Source: a virus. From it: a DNA stretch of 34,094 bases. The position numbers were made by a program, and so were the translations under genes. Numbering within the stretch: position 1 is the stretch's first letter; every line of letters starts with the position of its first letter. The notes below the pieces were generated by a model. That model did no database searches. It was not told the DNA's origin and saw only the letters and a list, made by a program, of their open reading frames with translations. The stretch spans positions 1-34,094 of the IMG/VR virus record IMGVR_UViG_3300028571_000064. The stretch is one strand, 5' to 3'. Below, one piece after another: positions 6,635 through 30,373 of the stretch.

Positions 6635-7288
6635 ATGGCAGACGTAAAAATTTCGGACTTAACGCCGGAGCAAATTAAAGAGTTGCACGCTGAGTTTCGT
6701 GCTAAGGAGAAACAAAACGCTGAAAAGCGAGCTAATGATCGGTTGGCATTGATTGACCTGGAGAATGAGGTAGTATTGGAAATGATGGCGGAGGTGGAGC
6801 TTCTTTCTGAAGCTATCGTGAATTTTAAACAGAAGTGTATTCACAAGCTTGAGCCACTCATGAAAATGAAAACGGAACTGGCAAAGGCTGCTGAGAAACA
6901 AAGGTCGTTTACCTTTAAAAGCAAGGACAATGTTGTGAAGTTTGTAATTGATTACAACGAGACTTTTAAGTACGACGATGGCATTCATGCGGGTGTAGAG
7001 TTTGCAAAACAGTGGCTGATTGAAAAATCGGACGAAAGCGACGACTCTAAAATGATGACGTCGATTATTGAGAACCTCCTCGGAAAATCGAGAGGTGGAA
7101 CTTACTCCGCTGAGAATCTTTGGATATTTGTGAGCTCGGCAGAGGATTACGATGTGCCATTGCTGAAATTGGCGGCTGACGCGGTGAAAAAGTCGCTGTA
7201 CAAGGAAATGACTAGCGTGAGTGTGAAGGTGTTTAAAAAGGACGAATTTGGGTATAAACAGTTGCCATTAAGTGCGACTAAGGCGTAG
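6635..7288 (+). CDS. DUF3164 family protein
   Basis: 217 residues. The opening ISDLTPEQIKELHAEFRAKE, the central block on early coiled-coil helices and the closing VFKKDEFGYKQLPLS match my memory of DUF3164 proteins found in Mu-like and Bacteroides phages. Those are early-region proteins of unknown biochemical role. This gene is in the same operon as the preceding ones (10 bp gap) and ends before a perfect hairpin at 7311-7344. Confidence 0.7.
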   Translation: MADVKISDLTPEQIKELHAEFRAKEKQNAEKRANDRLALIDLENEVVLEMMAEVELLSEAIVNFKQKCIHKLEPLMKMKTELAKAAEKQRSFTFKSKDNVVKFVIDYNETFKYDDGIHAGVEFAKQWLIEKSDESDDSKMMTSIIENLLGKSRGGTYSAENLWIFVSSAEDYDVPLLKLAADAVKKSLYKEMTSVSVKVFKKDEFGYKQLPLSATKA

Positions 7289-7968: not shown

Positions 7969-8436
7969 ATGAAGAAACTAGAAATTTCAGAACAAAACGC
8001 CCGGAAGCTATACAAAGATATGCCGGACTTTCGCCCCTCACTGGAGGATACTTTTGGTAAAGCATTTTTTACTGAAAAAATTACTGATAGGATTAAGACA
8101 TACGAGGATGCATGTGCGGAACTTGGTATTAGTCCGTGGACTGAAAAGGACTTTAGCACATCGGGGTTGAAACCGGATGAGATCACTTATCGGAAAATAA
8201 AAACAATTACTGAAGCACTTAATGAAGGTTGGAAGTGTGACTGGAAAGATGCAAACCAATACAAGTATTATCCATGGTTCCGTATGTCTTCCGGGGGCTT
8301 CGTTTTCCACGGTACGTATTTCGATTACTCGTTTGCGTCTGCGGGTTACGCCTCGCGCCTTTGCTTTAAAAGTTCGGAACTGGCCAAGTATGCCGGTGAA
8401 CAATTCTTACAATTATATTCAGATTTTATCATTTAG
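7969..8436 (+). CDS. Variable-region target protein 1 (carries VR1)
   Basis: 155 residues. An N-terminal helical part (MKKLEISEQNARKLY, KITDRIKTYEDACAELGI) is followed by a linker and a conserved core: NEGWKCDWKDA, YPWFRM (residues 100-106), SSGGFVF, then a patchwork of variable residues and SRLCF, then a tail (LAKYAGEQFLQLYSDF). VR1 covers about residues 106-132. All amino acid differences from the template-encoded sequence arise at template adenines. Small proteins with YPWF, GFxF, SRLCF and Y-A-G-x-x-F motifs are familiar to me from many Bacteroidota genomes, but I know no assigned function. The protein is cytoplasmic by lack of a signal peptide or TM segment. Paralogous to the gene at 8473. 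Confidence 0.85.
   Translation: MKKLEISEQNARKLYKDMPDFRPSLEDTFGKAFFTEKITDRIKTYEDACAELGISPWTEKDFSTSGLKPDEITYRKIKTITEALNEGWKCDWKDANQYKYYPWFRMSSGGFVFHGTYFDYSFASAGYASRLCFKSSELAKYAGEQFLQLYSDFII
8285..8364 (+). repeat. Variable repeat VR1
   Basis: 80 bp aligned without gaps to the template repeat 8883-8962. There are 16 differences, all at template adenines (changes to G, C or T), and none at the 58 template positions that are not A. Codons in template AAC/AAT become CAC, TAT, TAC, TTT, TCT and TAC. The identity to VR2 extends 16 bp further 5' (from 8269) and 3 bp further 3' than either shares with the template. Confidence 0.93.
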
Positions 8437-8472
8437 CAATAATCGCCGTAAGGCACAAACAATTTTACACAC

Positions 8473-8853
8473 ATGGAAAAACAAGAAGTAACACCAATGG
8501 AAAGCATCAAAACAGTAGAGGATGCTTTGAACGTAACAGGTACGCCTGTAACACCTGAATTTAATGAAGTGCCTGAGGAACTTCGTGAGTATTTTAAAGC
8601 CGTATATGAGGCAGTTGCAATAACCAAGGCTTTAGTTGGCGACTGGAAAGCCGACTGGAATGATGGTCGCCAACGTAAATGGTATCCATGGTTCCGTATG
8701 TCTTCCGGGGGCTTCGTTTTCCGCGCTACGTATTTCGATCGCTCGCGTGCGTTTGCGGGTGACGCCTCGCGCCTTTGCTTTCCGACTGATGAGATGGCAG
8801 AGTATGCAGGTCGGACGTTCACTGACGTGTACAGTCGAATGATTCTGAAGTAA
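8473..8853 (+). CDS. Variable-region target protein 2 (carries VR2)
   Basis: 126 residues, a shorter paralogue of the protein at 7969. It shares the core (GDWKADWNDG, KWYPWFRM, SSGGFVF, SRLCF) and the helical C-terminus (MAEYAGRTFTDVYSRM); the N-terminus is different and shorter (MEKQEVTPMESIKTVEDALNV). VR2 covers about residues 76-102. In the variable positions this copy has R, A, Y, F, D, R, R, F and D where protein 1 has H, G, Y, F, D, Y, F, S and Y. The ATG has the TTTTACACAC leader shared with other phage genes. It follows 36 bp after protein 1, probably same transcript. Partner unknown. Confidence 0.85.
   Translation: MEKQEVTPMESIKTVEDALNVTGTPVTPEFNEVPEELREYFKAVYEAVAITKALVGDWKADWNDGRQRKWYPWFRMSSGGFVFRATYFDRSRAFAGDASRLCFPTDEMAEYAGRTFTDVYSRMILK
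8699..8778 (+). repeat. Variable repeat VR2
   Basis: 80 bp aligned without gaps to the template 8883-8962: 18 differences, all at template adenines, none elsewhere. Against VR1 there are only 8 differences over 99 bp (8683-8781 versus 8269-8367), again all at template-adenine positions, while flanking coding sequence of the two genes is clearly more divergent. Confidence 0.93.
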
Positions 8854-8882
8854 AAAATTGGGGCTGTTTGTCTTTGTGAGGT

Positions 8883-8962
8883 TGTCTTCCAGGGGCTTCG
8901 TTTTCAACGATACGAATTACGATAACTCGAATGCGAATGCAGGTAACACCTCGCACCTATGA
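8883..8962 (+). repeat. Template repeat TR, non-coding
   Basis: 80 bp containing 22 adenines, lying 30 bp after the stop of variable gene 2 and outside any gene. In the VR reading frame it would encode many Asn codons (AAC/AAT at seven positions, the usual variable-codon design of retroelement templates) and a TGA at its end, so it is not a usable coding copy. Mismatches to VR1 and VR2 fall only at adenines. The last 15 bp differ from both VRs by the same four substitutions, reminiscent of IMH versus IMH* in the Bordetella phage system. The 3' edge abuts a palindromic repeat. Confidence 0.92.
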
Positions 8963-8986
8963 CCCCTAGCCCCTAAAGGGGAATTA
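8961..8986. repeat. Palindromic interspersed repeat abutting TR
   Basis: CCCCTAGCCCCT-AAAGGGG-AATT is one copy of a GC-rich palindromic repeat family also seen at 17158, 17240 and, in a longer form, at 9407, 13522 and 14927. It starts at or within two bases of where similarity of TR to the VRs ends, so its arrival may define or have truncated the TR 3' side. A second hairpin (ACCGC / GCGGT) follows at about 8997-9014. Confidence 0.7.
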
Positions 8987-9034
8987 CTAAGCCCTACCGC
9001 TTTGAACGGCGGTGGGGATACAAATAAAAAAGAT

Positions 9035-9505
9035 ATGGAGCAAGTACAGGCAAAGAGTAAAGGAACATGGGGTCGAAGGGTTGACCGCTCACGGCAGGAA
9101 TTGAATGTGATATGTGGGGCTTTTTTTGACGGCTTGCAAGTGCCGAATGAGTGGAAGATTATACGGTGGGATAAAACTGAGGAACTACCGCCAATAGGGA
9201 TAACGTCGATAGGGATTATTTTTATGGATACGCGGACTCGAGGGATTGATATTATGCATTACCGGGTGATGTTCCACACTTTTAGTGAACGAGGCGGGGT
9301 GTGTGAGAAATCAATGAAGGATTTTGGGAAGTCTGCTTATAAGTCGGTAGACCATGGGATTTTTACAGTAGAGAAATTGAATGAGTTTTTACATGATAGG
9401 TATTTTGACCTCACCCCAACCCCTCTCCTTGAGGAGAGGGGACAAAACCAAGTTTATGACAAGGATGACGGCTTGCAGCATTTTAGAGATAGACTCTCAG
9501 ATTGA
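9035..9505 (+). CDS. Hypothetical protein next to TR, repeat-extended C-terminus
   Basis: 156 residues from the MEQVQAK methionine; a TTG-initiated extension to 9002 is not favoured. The body (residues 15-125) has a mixed alpha/beta look, with WGRRVDRSRQELNV and YRVMFHTFSERGGVCEKS; no family is recognised. It has none of the reverse transcriptase motifs and is not an evident Avd-type helical bundle. After FLHDRYFD the frame enters an interspersed repeat (9407-9442, encoding LTPTPLLEERG) and continues 19 further codons. The original C-terminus was thus probably replaced. Downstream of TR in the position where an RT gene is normally found. Confidence 0.65.
   Translation: MEQVQAKSKGTWGRRVDRSRQELNVICGAFFDGLQVPNEWKIIRWDKTEELPPIGITSIGIIFMDTRTRGIDIMHYRVMFHTFSERGGVCEKSMKDFGKSAYKSVDHGIFTVEKLNEFLHDRYFDLTPTPLLEERGQNQVYDKDDGLQHFRDRLSD
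9407..9442. repeat. Palindromic repeat inserted in a coding region
   Basis: GACCTCACCCCAACCCCTCT followed by CCTTGAGGAGAGGGGA. The arms CCCCTCTCCT and AGGAGAGGGG form a hairpin. Same family as 13522-13560 and 14927-14964. Here it is read in frame as LTPTPLLEERG near the end of the gene starting at 9035. Confidence 0.8.
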
Positions 9506-9593
9506 GTGGCTGATTGGATTGGACGGTGATTTTAGTAATGAGATAGAAATTTTGAAACAACAAAAAATAGAAATTTATGATAGTAGCAATTGA
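9456..9593 (+). CDS. Possible small helical protein (45 aa)
   Basis: Frame starting MTRMTACSILEIDSQIEW and ending EIYDSSN, overlapping the previous gene's 3' end by 50 bp and the HAD gene start by 17 bp. The ILEIDSQIEWLIGLDGD part looks like a genuine short helical protein. The overlap with the previous gene lies entirely within the stretch after the inserted repeat, which fits the idea that the repeat insertion extended the upstream frame into this gene. No family recognised. Confidence 0.4.
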   Translation: MTRMTACSILEIDSQIEWLIGLDGDFSNEIEILKQQKIEIYDSSN

Positions 9594-9963
9594 TTTTGAC
9601 GGAACGATAGTAACTGATAAATATCCGGAAATAGGTGAAATAAAAGATGGTGCTAAGGAAGCTATTAACCAACTGTATGCTGATGGTTATACGATAATAA
9701 TATGGAGCTGCCGCACTGGCATTAATAAAGCGAGAGCGATAGAGTGGCTAGTAAAACAGGGTATAAAGTTCCACTATTTTAATGAAAGCAGCTATGAGAA
9801 CCTAAAGCAGCATGAATTTAAAGATACTCGTAAAGTTTTTGCCAACCTGTACATCGATGACCGTATGCTGTTTAAACTTCCCACATGGGATGAAATATAC
9901 TGGATAGTGCGAGACCTGGTGCCAACGCGAGCGGATAAGGTTATTAATGAGGGGTATTTGTAA
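9577..9963 (+). CDS. HAD-superfamily hydrolase-like protein (BT0820-like)
   Basis: 128 residues. Motif I is IDFDGT (residues 5-10, nucleophile Asp and acid/base Asp), motif II is the Ser of IIIWSCRTG, and a late acidic motif is YIDDRML. Size and the GEIKDGAKEAINQLYADGYT opening resemble the short cap-less HAD phosphatases of Bacteroides exemplified by BT0820. Substrate unknown; in phages such genes are common in accessory regions, perhaps for nucleotide or sugar phosphate processing. Active-site residues appear intact. Confidence 0.8.
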   Translation: MIVAIDFDGTIVTDKYPEIGEIKDGAKEAINQLYADGYTIIIWSCRTGINKARAIEWLVKQGIKFHYFNESSYENLKQHEFKDTRKVFANLYIDDRMLFKLPTWDEIYWIVRDLVPTRADKVINEGYL

Positions 9964-13521: not shown

Positions 13522-13560
13522 GACCTCACCCATAACCCCTCTCCTTGAGGAGAGGGGAAT
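13522..13560. repeat. Palindromic interspersed repeat, long form
   Basis: GACCTCACCCATAACCCCTC ... GAGGAGAGGGGAAT: hairpin arms CCCCTCTCCT / AGGAGAGGGG. Same family as 9407-9442 and 14927-14964. It lies just upstream of the leftward gene at 13009. Confidence 0.8.
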
Positions 13561-13638
13561 AAGACGAAGTTTTGAGTTAAATTTGCACTTAAATAGCAAT
13601 TAATTAGGGTTTAAAGTACCATTTATTGAAAAATGTTG

Positions 13639-13735: not shown

Positions 13736-16345
13736 AGCCAAAAAGTCATCTTCATTCTCAATAGTGTAGGGCTTGATTTCACCTTTCTTGGTTACTTTTA
13801 AATTGATATAGCAGGTTTCACCTCCAATTTCGGATTTATAATATATCCAGTAATCCACATCATCGTGTTTTTGCTTTCCATTAATTCTCTCATCCTCTGC
13901 CCAACCATAGTACTCAGACTTTTTAAATAAACTCTTCATAGTCATTACTGCTTTATCTCTAGCAACAGGGTCATTAATTCCTTTTGATAACAGCGTTTTT
14001 ACAGAAGACCTTGTAATGGTTAGTTTATCTATATAATCATCCTTTATAGACACCAAATACGGTTTATCGATTTCAATCTTTTTAGTTGCCCACACTTTTA
14101 CCTTTATTCTTGACTCAACAATTCTAGCCTTTTTTGCCTCTGCATTCCACATCCAGTCTTTGGCGATAATTTCAATTGAACTTCTTACTTTTTCACTGCA
14201 TGACTTTACGTATGGGTGTTCGGCCATGTTTACTATCTCGGCTGTTTCGGCTGGATTATTGGCAAATATAATGTCCAGCTGCGTGTCATCTTCGGGCGCA
14301 TCGGTTACTTCTTTGTCGGTTTGCTCCACTGAGCACTCGCATCCCCAGTCGGAAGGTGGTAAGTGCTTTTTCCACCATGGGTGGTTTATGGGCAGTATGG
14401 TTCCAACCCATGCGGCGTGTTCCTCCCGCGGTGTGGCTGCCGTGCTGGCCATGTATTCCATATTTGGGTACAAGTGGGCAGTAGCTTGAAAGCCTTTCAC
14501 CTTGGTGGCCATACGTGCAGAGCGCACGGCGGTGTTGTACTCCGTTTTGAGCCAATTCTCGTTATAATCGGATTTTATACTTGTGCCAAGTACCGATTTA
14601 CGGAAATTGTCATACGACCTTAAATTACCGTCGGCATCCAATAATTGAGCAGCTATATCCTTGCCCTGGGCATGTGTTTTGAACGCAGCAAATATGGCTG
14701 TATTTTGCTTGAACTCGTTTATAAATGCTTCGTTTTTTTTGCCAAACTCAGAAACCAGCCCACGTCCAAAAACACTGGCAATTCCGTAATCAATGGCTTG
14801 TTGAAAAGCCTTGTTTGATATATCAAAGAGTGGTTTTGATACCAACGGCATATCATTTGGATTTATGCCATATTGCTTATAGATATCATTTAATGCTTTG
14901 TCGAACAGCTTGTCAATGTTTATGCCAACCTCACCCCCGACCCCTCTCCCAGAGGAGAGGGGAGATGAATCGGTCAGGCTAATGCCTGTGTGTTTTATAG
15001 AGCTCGTTGATTTGTCTGCTAAGTTCAGTCCTGCCCGGCTCCTCGTTGTCCGGGCGTTGACGAAAAAATTGTACATCTTTTCGAATGTTTCAATATCATC
15101 ATCACTCAATTTTACCTCTGCCTTTTTTGGGGACTTTGGTGACGGTGCCGGTTCTGGTGGAACCGGGGCGTTTGGGTCAACTGGAGCATTTGGGTCAACT
15201 GGTGCTGGTTGTGAGCTTTTTTTTGCAATAATATCTCCATCAGCTGGTTGTGGAAGCCCATATTTGTCATGAAAATAATAAGCCGGTATTTCAATGATTT
15301 CACTCAGCTTTACCAGTTCATCAACCGTTAGGTCTTTTAATGCCTTTGGAAAATTGAACGCACCATCTTTTACTTTGTATCCGCGTGCTTCAAGTATGGG
15401 CTTCAACTTTTTGTTGAGAATGCGTTGTACAAAACGCAAATCTGCTTTGTTGAGTTCTTCCTCCACATCCTTATGTACATTACTTTGCGACATGCTAGAA
15501 CCGTCCATTGTAGTCATGGTCTGACTTAAAACGGTAATCAACATAAACTCCTGCAGCGTGGATATAAAGTCCTTGTATAAACCAGAGCCGGCACTTCCGC
15601 TTAAGGTGGTAGTTTCGATATCGGTTTCCTTTGGTACTATCAGCGTGGCAGCTGCACCCTGTGCATCGAAAGCTTCCTGCAACTGTTTTCGCGCTTCGGT
15701 ATCGTAAATTGAATACTTGCCCACACGCTGTGGCATGCCAAATAGTTCTACCATTTGCGCCCAGTCGCCCAATCCACCGCGTTGCATAATCACATAGGGT
15801 GCGGCACGGTGTAAAAGTCCGTATTTTGTTGAGCGGTTTTTTATTTCAATCACATTGGGAGCATCACCATAAGAAATGCCAGCATCATAATCAGACTCAT
15901 TAATGGCAATGAGCTGCTTATCGGTACGGATGTGTTTACGCGGTGCGGAATAGACATTAAAACCGTTTGAGAAATCAAACTCAAGCACGGTGACGTACTC
16001 AAAAATAGATTGCATTATTTCTTCGAGCATAAACTCAAATTCGTCAGAATCTATCAAATCTATCATCTCATCTGACTCCGTTCCGTCGGCAAACTGAAAG
16101 GTAAGGTCTGCGCCCTTCACTGCACGAATGCGCTTATCTATGGCATCGGCAAGGATACCATCCGTTTTTAGTAGTTCGTATAAATCGAATAGTTCCTTGT
16201 ACTTACCAACATCGGCAGATTTGAGCGCGTTTGTCCATTTTTCCATGGATAGTAAACTTCTGTTTACCGGCTTAACAATGACTTGGTTTACAATTATGGA
16301 TTGATTCTTACCGCCTTTTTTGACGGTGGCTTTTACATCAGTCAT
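13700..16345 (-). CDS. Portal (DUF935)-Mu F-like head protein fusion with extra C-terminal domain
   Basis: 881 residues, larger than Mu gp29 alone. Residues ~20-400 look like the DUF935 portal (MEKWTNALKSADVGKYKELF, LDFSNGFNVYSAPRKHI, ADGDIIAKKSSQ). After a Pro-rich linker and an inserted repeat (14927-14964, residues ~460-473), residues ~480-690 resemble the Mu F-like minor head protein, with AARSARMATKVKGF-type helix and ATPREEHAAWVGTILPINHPWW. Residues ~750-881 (KVWATKKIEIDKPYL, YYGWAEDERING, YWIYYKSEIGGETCYI) are additional and may be a PBECR-type nuclease domain as reported in some phage head proteins; that is a weak resemblance. The stop at 13700 overlaps the proposed sRNA. Confidence 0.8.
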   Translation of the reverse strand: MTDVKATVKKGGKNQSIIVNQVIVKPVNRSLLSMEKWTNALKSADVGKYKELFDLYELLKTDGILADAIDKRIRAVKGADLTFQFADGTESDEMIDLIDSDEFEFMLEEIMQSIFEYVTVLEFDFSNGFNVYSAPRKHIRTDKQLIAINESDYDAGISYGDAPNVIEIKNRSTKYGLLHRAAPYVIMQRGGLGDWAQMVELFGMPQRVGKYSIYDTEARKQLQEAFDAQGAAATLIVPKETDIETTTLSGSAGSGLYKDFISTLQEFMLITVLSQTMTTMDGSSMSQSNVHKDVEEELNKADLRFVQRILNKKLKPILEARGYKVKDGAFNFPKALKDLTVDELVKLSEIIEIPAYYFHDKYGLPQPADGDIIAKKSSQPAPVDPNAPVDPNAPVPPEPAPSPKSPKKAEVKLSDDDIETFEKMYNFFVNARTTRSRAGLNLADKSTSSIKHTGISLTDSSPLSSGRGVGGEVGINIDKLFDKALNDIYKQYGINPNDMPLVSKPLFDISNKAFQQAIDYGIASVFGRGLVSEFGKKNEAFINEFKQNTAIFAAFKTHAQGKDIAAQLLDADGNLRSYDNFRKSVLGTSIKSDYNENWLKTEYNTAVRSARMATKVKGFQATAHLYPNMEYMASTAATPREEHAAWVGTILPINHPWWKKHLPPSDWGCECSVEQTDKEVTDAPEDDTQLDIIFANNPAETAEIVNMAEHPYVKSCSEKVRSSIEIIAKDWMWNAEAKKARIVESRIKVKVWATKKIEIDKPYLVSIKDDYIDKLTITRSSVKTLLSKGINDPVARDKAVMTMKSLFKKSEYYGWAEDERINGKQKHDDVDYWIYYKSEIGGETCYINLKVTKKGEIKPYTIENEDDFLAKKQIKRENPIR
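14927..14964. repeat. Palindromic repeat inserted in frame in portal fusion gene
   Basis: CCTCACCCCCGACCCCTCTC ... GAGGAGAGGGGAG. Read leftward it encodes SPLSSGRGVGGEVG, a translation typical of this repeat family. It lies in the linker between the portal and Mu F-like parts and keeps the frame open. Confidence 0.8.
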
Positions 16346-16802: not shown

Positions 16803-17219
16803 TTATTTTAAGTTTTTAGCGGTTTGATAAACGATGTTTATTCCTGGTACTTCTATGTTATAAATGGGGTGAGAATTAACGTGTCCCTGCGTGTCGTAAA
16901 GTTGAATGCCTTTCATTTTTTCGAGCGACATGCCTGTTTTAATGACCCGTTCATTTTTTAGCCATTGCACCTGTTTTCGGTTTACAACCCGGTACTTTCC
17001 GCCTAGAAAATAAATGTAGGTTCGTTTTCCTTTTCGAGCCCCCCTGCCCCCCATAAGGGGTGTGCCGGCAGCTAGTTTTTCGGCTTGCCTTACTGCTTTT
17101 ACAAAATGTAGCCTGTTGGCTCGCCATTTGGTTCGGGTAATAAGGAACCATTTAATAAAGCCCCCTAACCCCCTCAAGGGGGAATTAGAGTTAGTATTGT
17201 TTTTTTTGTTTGTTTCCAT
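16803..17219 (-). CDS. Hypothetical structural-region protein with two repeat insertions
   Basis: 138 residues. The N-terminal 20 residues (NKKNNTNSNSPLRGLGGFIK) are encoded by a palindromic repeat copy, and residues ~53-62 (GTPLMGGRGARKG) by a second related repeat (17038-17066). The remaining conserved-looking core, KWRANRLHFVKAVRQAEKLA and YIYFLGGKYRVVNRKQVQWL, may be the ancestral protein. A start further in is possible, but no ATG is better placed. No family recognised; in the place of a head-tail protein between DUF1320 and terminase. Confidence 0.6.
   Translation of the reverse strand: METNKKNNTNSNSPLRGLGGFIKWFLITRTKWRANRLHFVKAVRQAEKLAAGTPLMGGRGARKGKRTYIYFLGGKYRVVNRKQVQWLKNERVIKTGMSLEKMKGIQLYDTQGHVNSHPIYNIEVPGINIVYQTAKNLK
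17038..17066. repeat. Degenerate palindromic repeat within gene
   Basis: GCCCCCCTGCCCCCCATAAG followed by GGGTGTGCC. Short hairpin arms CCCC/GGGG, related to the CCCCCTAACCCCCTCAAGGGGG family. Read in frame by the leftward gene. Confidence 0.6.
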
Positions 17220-17316
17220 GTGTGTGTTGTTTACTAATAAAGCCCCCTAACCCCCTCAAGGGGGAATTAGAGTTAGTATTGTTTGTTTGTTTGTTTGTTT
17301 GTTTGTTTGTTTGTTT
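17153..17316. repeat. 82-bp tandem duplication with (GTTT)9 tract
   Basis: The segment beginning TAATAAAGCCCCCTAACCCC occurs at 17153 and again at 17235, 82 bp apart; each includes the palindromic repeat (17158-17187 and 17240-17269). The second copy ends in nine tandem GTTT units (17281-17316), whereas the first has only TTTTTTTGTTTG. On the coding strand this is (AAAC)9 upstream of the gene starting at 17219. The upstream copy has ACG where the downstream gene copy has the start ATG. Confidence 0.8.
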
Positions 17317-30182: not shown

Positions 30183-30186
30183 AAAA

Positions 30187-30275
30187 AACGCCCTTCAAAG
30201 CAAGAAGTGCGTTAAAAAATGTCCTTCAAAGCAAGAAGTACATTAAAAAATGTCCTTCAAAGCAAGAAGTACATT
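30187..30275. repeat. Three tandem hairpin repeats with compensatory changes
   Basis: CCTTCAAAGCAAGAAGT occurs at 30191-30207, 30222-30238 and 30253-30269, period 31. Copy 1 is framed by AACGC...GCGTT and copies 2-3 by AATGT...ACATT, two compensated base pairs; inner CTTC pairs with GAAG. Each stem is preceded by A-runs, so on the minus strand T-runs follow it: possible leftward terminators. Confidence 0.75.
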
Positions 30276-30373
30276 AACGCTTGCAAAAGTAATGAATTAT
30301 TTTAATAATGCAAGTATATTGTAGAAAAATAATTTACTAGCCTTTAATTTATTAGATACAACAATAAACATAT

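What the first reader, a model, noticed from the sequence alone, without database searches (positions are those of the whole stretch)
7969..9505. The DGR-like cassette has no reverse transcriptase or Avd in the whole prophage
Known DGRs keep an RT gene (about 300-400 aa) close to the TR, and often an Avd helper. Every long frame in this 34-kb window has another assignment, and no frame shows RT motifs; the gene after TR (9035-9505) is too short and unlike RT or Avd. So the cassette is either served in trans by an RT elsewhere in the genome or another phage, or uses a different mutator, or is a relic of a system that lost its RT. The first two would be new arrangements for a phage-carried DGR.
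Basis: partly seen in the sequence, partly recalled or inferred. Interest (0 to 1): 0.88.

Follow-up and report, generated by a model that had tools for sequence, protein, structure and literature searches.

The report
Phage hypermutation cassette missing its enzyme
This Mu-like phage carries a gene-scrambling cassette whose enzyme and RNA handle have been cut out, while most of its close relatives still have both, so it is most likely a recently disabled copy that can only receive new variants from other phages.

Summary
Two variable repeats (8285-8363, 8699-8777) differ from the template repeat (TR, 8883-8961) at 15 and 17 of 21 TR adenines and at 0 of 58 other positions; the 34-kb record has no reverse transcriptase (RT). 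The cassette belongs to a diversity-generating retroelement (DGR) family of Mu-like Bacteroidales phages. Of 35 records that read past the TR, 32 carry an RT beside it (two frameshifted), 3 do not. In the window and one MAG prophage (L026) a deletion removed the RT, a 105-aa companion gene and the structured spacer 3' of the TR; a GC-rich palindrome marks the joint. A third prophage (L028) keeps TR and spacer but has another gene in place of the RT. No RT was found in either MAG. By the known mechanism the window's own TR should be dead even with an RT in trans. No decay is visible, but the shared RT-less block is young (2 differences in 396 nt). Inside it VR2's flanks differ from L026 about as much as from an RT-bearing relative, which points to recombination replacing VR2. 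Homing from a helper phage's identical TR is possible, unproven. Best reading: recent, recurrent loss of the DGR engine.

The parts
7969..8436 (+). Target gene 1 (155 aa) with VR1 near its C-end; relatives at 27.7-32.1% identity in Bacteroides-type phages, among them the distal DGR target of LoVEphage
   Evidence: phrog_11581, E 7e-32; 8 of 10 records match over 99-100% of the query
8285..8363 (+). VR1
   Evidence: 15 of 21 TR adenines changed, 0 of 58 other positions
8473..8853 (+). Target gene 2 (126 aa) with VR2
   Evidence: phrog_11581, E 1.8e-15
8699..8777 (+). VR2
   Evidence: 17 of 21 TR adenines changed, 0 of 58 other positions
8862..8882 (+). Conserved 5' flank of TR
   Evidence: alignment with relatives
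8883..8961 (+). TR (79 nt, AAY codons), identical to the TR of RT-bearing relatives L001, L015, L017, L027, L032
8962..9034 (+). Deletion joint: GC-rich palindrome (8970-8981) and a second predicted hairpin (8992-9017; fold only modestly better than shuffles, z -1.68) where relatives have the TR spacer, RT and 105-aa gene
   Evidence: same joint in L026
9035..9505 (+). Conserved phage gene of unknown function, downstream of the RT in 12 of 15 RT-bearing records compared
9577..9963 (+). HAD-like phosphatase, next gene in the conserved order

Best explanation
The cassette is a DGR of Mu-like Bacteroidales phages that lost everything between the TR and the next conserved gene: the structured spacer 3' of the TR, the RT and its 105-aa companion (shown by comparison; that it was one deletion is inferred from the clean joint). 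The loss is recent and the RT-less block has moved between phage backbones by homologous recombination (inferred from mosaic identity). By the BPP-1 model the window's own TR can no longer be reverse transcribed (inferred). Its two target genes keep variants made before the loss and can gain new ones mainly by recombination with RT-bearing relatives, as the VR2 tract suggests. RT function has been lost or broken in three ways in this family (deletion, replacement, frameshift).
For: 14 of 14 relatives searched (of 17 loci) carry an RVT_1 RT; 32 of 35 records that read past the TR have it next to the TR. The relatives' RT is DGR-like: best solved match 8ub7, E 5.1e-56 (BPP-1 DGR RT by recall), with an IGxxxSQ motif (motif by recall). 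Order TR-RT-105 aa-cargo-9035-like ORF-HAD in 12 of 15 RT-bearing records; window and L026 lack just the middle. Covariance model of the spacer hits 33 of 35 and misses only window and L026 (12 hits are training sequences, 15 more score like one of them, 6 are new: L028, L083, L086, L088, L089, L100). Window v L026: 0/144 and 2/252 differences either side of VR2, but 16/121 in VR2's flanks plus 11/79 in VR2, all 11 at adenines; in those flanks the window is 17/122 from RT-bearing L001 and 15/122 from L026. L026's terminase is only 43-44% identical in protein.
Against: TR, VR1 and VR2 show no non-A mismatch in window or L028 and one in L026, as clean as RT-bearing cassettes, which a maintained system would also give. 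The blocks of the mosaic argument were chosen after seeing the data. The spacer's fold rests on few covarying pairs (4 of 16), and one intact spacer (L015) folds no better than shuffles (z +0.91). The joint was found in no further IMG/VR contig, so it rests on two records. The record may be incomplete and no reads were available.
Confidence: 0.7

Rival explanations
1. Helper model: RT-less phages are clients. A co-resident RT-bearing phage supplies RT, companion protein and mutagenised cDNA from its own identical TR, which homes into the client's VRs; in L028 even the client's own TR RNA could be used.
For: TR identical in several RT-bearing phages. [quoted passage not shown] More than one inducible prophage in 28 of 41 (68%) Bacteroidota lysogens (PMC12629997, passages). 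L028 keeps the spacer (116.5 bits, not in the training set). Window and L026 share the RT-less joint but differ at 11 of 16 core VR2 adenines.
Against: No RT found in the MAGs holding L026 (6.3 Mb) and L028 (3.9 Mb). VR2's flanks changed together with VR2, which homing alone does not explain. No near-identical RT-less pair was available for a clean test.
Confidence: 0.22
2. The RT lies elsewhere in this phage, outside the 34-kb record.
For: Record linear, completeness not given. Distant relatives have a target gene far from the RT (LoVEphage, Versailles).
Against: In 32 of 32 RT-bearing relatives the RT is next to the TR; none found in L026's and L028's MAGs; the record runs from transposase to tail genes.
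Confidence: 0.04
3. Old fossil: the cassette died long ago.
For: RT, companion gene and spacer are all gone.
Against: No non-A mismatch among TR, VR1 and VR2; both target frames open; shared RT-less block only 2 of 396 sites diverged.
Confidence: 0.03
4. Assembly or binning artefact.
For: Metagenomic record.
Against: The same joint in an independent MAG contig with a different backbone.
Confidence: 0.01

Closest known systems
DGRs of the Mu-like Bacteroidales phage family found here (e.g. IMG/VR contigs L001, L015; Paludibacter MAG L027)
   Same: Same two target genes, same TR (79/79 in these three), same neighbours
   Different: They keep spacer, RT and 105-aa gene; window and L026 lack all three, L028 lacks RT and 105-aa gene
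Hankyphage DGR (Bacteroides transposable phage; PMC6199706 and PMC12135933, passages)
   Same: Transposable Bacteroides-group phage with a DGR
   Different: Hankyphage has RT and Avd and its tail fibre is mutated; here there is no RT and the small targets lie away from the tail genes
[quoted passage not shown]
   Same: A prophage with VR but no RT; shows that service in trans is possible
   Different: Laboratory deletion; the natural case here keeps the TR but not its spacer
Treponema denticola strains with VR genes but no RT or TR (PMC4891356, passages); partial DGRs in nanoarchaea (PMC4372165, passages)
   Same: A-pattern targets left without a local RT
   Different: Cellular genomes; TR lost too (Treponema) or other DGRs present in the genome (nanoarchaea)
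TR-VR pairs in 6.5% of 53,630 RT-less gut virus genomes (PMC8241571, passages)
   Same: RT-less phage genomes with TR-VR pairs were counted before
   Different: Not characterised individually in the passages seen

Membership tests
Diversity-generating retroelement (DGR) | Near-identical TR and VR differing at TR adenines | tested here: met
   32 of 32 differences at adenines in the window
Diversity-generating retroelement (DGR) | DGR-type RT gene | tested here: not met
   None in window; present in 32 of 35 records incl. two frameshifted
Diversity-generating retroelement (DGR) | Accessory gene (Avd or other) | tested here: not met
   105-aa companion gene absent; no Avd family among 19 window proteins scanned
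Diversity-generating retroelement (DGR) | Structured spacer RNA 3' of TR that recruits RT (BPP-1 rule) | tested here: not met
   Model R1 misses window and L026, hits L028 and all 32 RT-bearing records; the spacer's role is by analogy only
Diversity-generating retroelement (DGR) | VR lies in a gene with a C-lectin or Ig fold | tested here: inconclusive
   AlphaFold model of target 1: helical N-part, residues 107-129 pLDDT below 50; best PDB match E 2.1
Diversity-generating retroelement (DGR) | Ongoing mutagenic retrohoming | not testable with these tools
   Needs reads or cultures; in RT-bearing L001 v L003 VR2 differs at 6/16 core adenines with flanks 0/275
Mu-like (transposable) phage | MuA/MuB-like transposition proteins and Mu-type portal | tested here: met
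   phrog_310, phrog_296; Portal_Mu E 8.8e-58, Phage_Mu_F

The most novel reading that the evidence does not exclude
DGR clients: phages that have shed the RT but keep hypervariable targets (and, in L028, a complete template RNA) and have them diversified by the RT or cDNA of co-resident RT-bearing phages, so that hypermutation is a shared good between prophages.
Probability: 0.22. Interest if true: 0.82.

Novelty: new variant of a known kind. Interest (0 to 1): 0.5.

Why it matters
Naturally RT-deleted DGRs with the template kept are ready-made knock-outs. They separate which parts are needed in cis (spacer, TR, target site) from those that could act in trans, and raise the testable question whether prophages share one hypermutation engine. 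Repeated RT loss in one family suggests that the engine is costly or dispensable while its products are kept. The comparison also gives a conserved spacer RNA and a 105-aa RT companion as new handles on this DGR family.

Tried and rejected

(393 genomes) used a mistyped pattern; G015, which holds the TR, did not match, so the call is void and not counted. Done correctly: 2 of 150 and 3 of 150 genomes with the TR, on largely overlapping genome sets, all three already known.

ORF 9035 as a divergent RT or Avd: rejected. Relatives of ORF 9035 and of L028's 144-aa ORF in viral contigs: none confirmed. The joint sequence in viral contigs: none (the window's own record may be left out of such scans).

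LoVEphage as a second RT-less phage: rejected, it has TR, two VRs and a split RT.

TR conservation between window and L026 (0/79) as proof of function: rejected, because the joint next to it is equally conserved (1/103).

Fold of target 1: no usable match by sequence or structure.

Literature: listings and passages of PMC8144416, PMC11792537, PMC6642488 (no passage for the terms) and PMC6199706 showed no natural phage DGR with TR kept and RT lost; this is limited to the held open-access library and these terms. PMC8525569 (LoVEphage) was seen in the listing only.

Numbers: the Fisher test used 15/122 for VR2's flanks and 2/396 for the rest (P 1.7e-8); the exact flank count of the same call is 16/121. 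One search examined 39 records; four were set aside (L090, L096, L101 end before the RT place; L102 has no target genes). Not given: L084, L085, L087 (no target gene seen) and second loci of contigs already counted. One search covers 33 records and counts 21 distinct cassettes, one of which (L016) is a partial copy of L014's; L088 and L089 were left out there because their TR is too diverged for that scan. 'Core' adenines are the 16 of 21 TR adenines left after dropping five that carry the same base in all VRs of the close group.

Full report
What is there. The window is a Mu-like phage record (MuA and MuB relatives; Mu portal). Two small genes each carry a variable repeat near the C-end: VR1 8285-8363 in the 155-aa frame 7969-8436 and VR2 8699-8777 in the 126-aa frame 8473-8853. 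The TR follows at 8883-8961. All 15 and 17 differences fall on TR adenines, none on the 58 other positions (P about 1e-11 and 7e-14). The TR is rich in AAY codons, as expected of a DGR template. No RT was found in the record.

The family. A peptide-pattern scan of IMG/VR gave 17 related loci, a TR-pattern scan 21 stretches, scans with the transposase and with the 6635-7288 protein 7 and 14 loci, some on contigs already held, and the genome collection 3 MAG loci. Of the first 17 loci, 14 were searched for RVT_1 and 14 of 14 have it. In all, 39 records were checked for the RT; 35 read past the TR place. 32 of these have an RT next to the TR, two of them (L094, L095, identical over 2844 nt, from two metagenomes) with a frameshift after the YADD motif; 3 have none: window, L026, L028. 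Many of the 35 are copies of one population: one search counts 21 distinct cassettes in 33 records (one a partial copy), 3 of them RT-less and 1 with the frameshifted RT. The RT is DGR-like: its best solved relative is 8ub7 (E 5.1e-56; known to me as the BPP-1 DGR RT, by recall), and it has the IGxxxSQ motif recalled for DGR RTs.

Anatomy of the intact system. The usual order is VR1, VR2, TR, RT, a 105-aa gene that overlaps the RT stop (phrog_19665, function unknown), variable cargo, the relative of window ORF 9035-9505 (12 of 15 RT-bearing records compared), and a HAD-like gene. The 105-aa gene was found in 28 of the 32 RT-bearing records; two more are cut by the contig end and two (L088, L089) gave no hit. 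Between TR and the presumed RT start lies a spacer of roughly 100-120 nt. Its alignment (12 sequences) gives a consensus with 16 pairs, 4 of them with changes on both sides. One is a hairpin pair that is C-G in 8, G-C in 3 and broken in 1 of 12 (the broken one is L095, whose RT is frameshifted). The TR's last bases can pair with a conserved AGCAAAG just before the RT start, but these pairs hardly vary and so say little. Single spacers fold unevenly: L028 better than shuffles (z -2.84), L015 not (z +0.91). The layout resembles the BPP-1 spacer, which recruits the RT-Avd complex and primes cDNA at the 3' end of TR (PMC12875486, passages). The likeness is by position and pairing only; function was not tested.

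What the window lost. In window and L026 the TR is followed by a GC-rich palindrome and then the 9035-type ORF, with no spacer, RT or 105-aa gene. The spacer model hits all 32 RT-bearing records and L028, and misses window and L026. 12 of those hits are training sequences and 15 more score like one of them; outside the training set are L028 (116.5 bits), L083, L086 and L100 (123) and the distant L088 and L089 (45.8). So the window's TR would lack its presumed RT-recruiting part even if an RT came from elsewhere. L028 is different: TR and spacer are complete up to the RT start, but RT and 105-aa gene are replaced by a 144-aa frame with weak likeness to endonuclease VII families. Searches of the MAGs with RVT_1 (E<=0.01) and with L027's RT (E<=10) found no RT for L026 (one chance-level match, E 0.447) or L028, and found L027's own RT as positive control. 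MAG completeness is not known.

Is it a fossil, or still served? TR and VRs agree at every non-A site in window and L028 and at all but one in L026, like RT-bearing cassettes, which have 0 or 1 mismatch per VR. That excludes long decay but not recent loss. Window and L026 have 0/144 differences at 8469-8612 and 2/252 at 8813-9064 (this includes TR 0/79 and joint 1/103), but 16/121 in the flanks of VR2 and 11/79 within VR2; downstream, 9065-9408 has 36/344. The 11 in VR2 are all at core adenines, with 0 of 58 non-A sites changed. In VR2's flanks the window is about as close to RT-bearing L001 (15/88 and 2/34) as to L026 (11/88 and 4/34). The simplest reading is that the two share a recent RT-less block and that in one of them a tract with VR2 was replaced by recombination with an RT-bearing relative. 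Homing would have changed VR2 alone. The reverse, two imports of the flanking blocks, is less simple but not excluded, and the blocks were chosen after looking. The backbones are far apart at terminase (43-44% identity) and portal (29%), so the RT-less block seems to have travelled between phages. The joint was seen in these two records only (one search found no other).

Helper model. It stays open. The TR is identical in several RT-bearing phages; a VR-only BPP-1 prophage is diversified by a donor in trans in the laboratory (PMC3240598, passages); more than one inducible prophage per lysogen is common in Bacteroidota (PMC12629997, passages). But no helper RT was found with the two RT-less MAG prophages, and no clean pair of RT-less siblings was available.

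What the targets may do. The two targets lie between transposition genes and structural genes, not with the tail genes. Among their relatives is the second, distal DGR target of LoVEphage-type Bacteroides phages. PMC12629997 (passages) notes that such second targets lie near counter-defence genes such as a DNA methyltransferase, and one is annotated upstream of the target in a LoVEphage record. A role inside the host cell is a guess. The predicted structure is helical with an unresolved variable part, and no known fold matched.

Novelty. DGR targets without a local RT, and RT-less phages with TR-VR pairs, have been reported or counted (PMC4891356, PMC4372165, PMC8241571; passages). A natural phage DGR with template kept and RT plus spacer deleted, set against its intact family, was not found in the searches made. 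I rate it a new variant of a known kind, interest 0.5.

Noticed in passing
L068, L071, L072, L073 (LoVEphage group records): The LoVEphage RT is split into 275-, 111- and 199-aa frames in the four records read, and the RT match is split alike in all six. Yet the TR is identical in six of six, the near VRs differ in all six and the distal VRs make five alleles: a possibly active DGR with a broken or frameshifted RT.
   Followed up: partly
L094 5980-7080, L095 5550-6650: RT frameshifted after the YADD motif in two metagenome contigs, with three VRs (one non-A mismatch in all) and a TR.
   Followed up: partly
L083, L086, L100: Apparently closely related phages with three VR genes, the first two, or the first and third: target genes seem to be gained or lost as units.
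   Followed up: no
L013 2760-3429: VR1 identical to L014's and lacking a non-A base of its own TR, while VR2 and TR equal L011's: recombinant, or a chimeric contig.
   Followed up: no
L015 10341-10658; L027 11560-11877: 105-aa gene overlapping the RT stop (phrog_19665), with a similar C-terminal part in LoVEphage's third RT frame: candidate DGR accessory protein (the LoVEphage likeness is by eye).
   Followed up: partly
window 8293, 8343, 8350, 8357, 8361 and the same places in VR2: Five of the 21 TR adenines (TR positions 9, 59, 66, 73, 77) carry the same non-A base in the VRs of the close group (read by eye), although one of them (59) is a silent third position with variable sites on both sides.
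   Followed up: no
window 8970-8981, 9418-9459, 13534-13575, 14939-14980, 17153-17206, 17235-17288: Scattered short GC-rich palindromic repeats, one at the RT deletion joint, another inside ORF 9035-9505, and one between VR2 and TR in L026.
   Followed up: no
window 30183-30277: Three tandem repeats of 31 nt in front of the large tail-like gene.
   Followed up: no
L001 v L003: Two contigs identical in the VR2 flanks but differing at 6 of 16 core VR2 adenines: recent DGR activity in an RT-bearing relative.
   Followed up: yes
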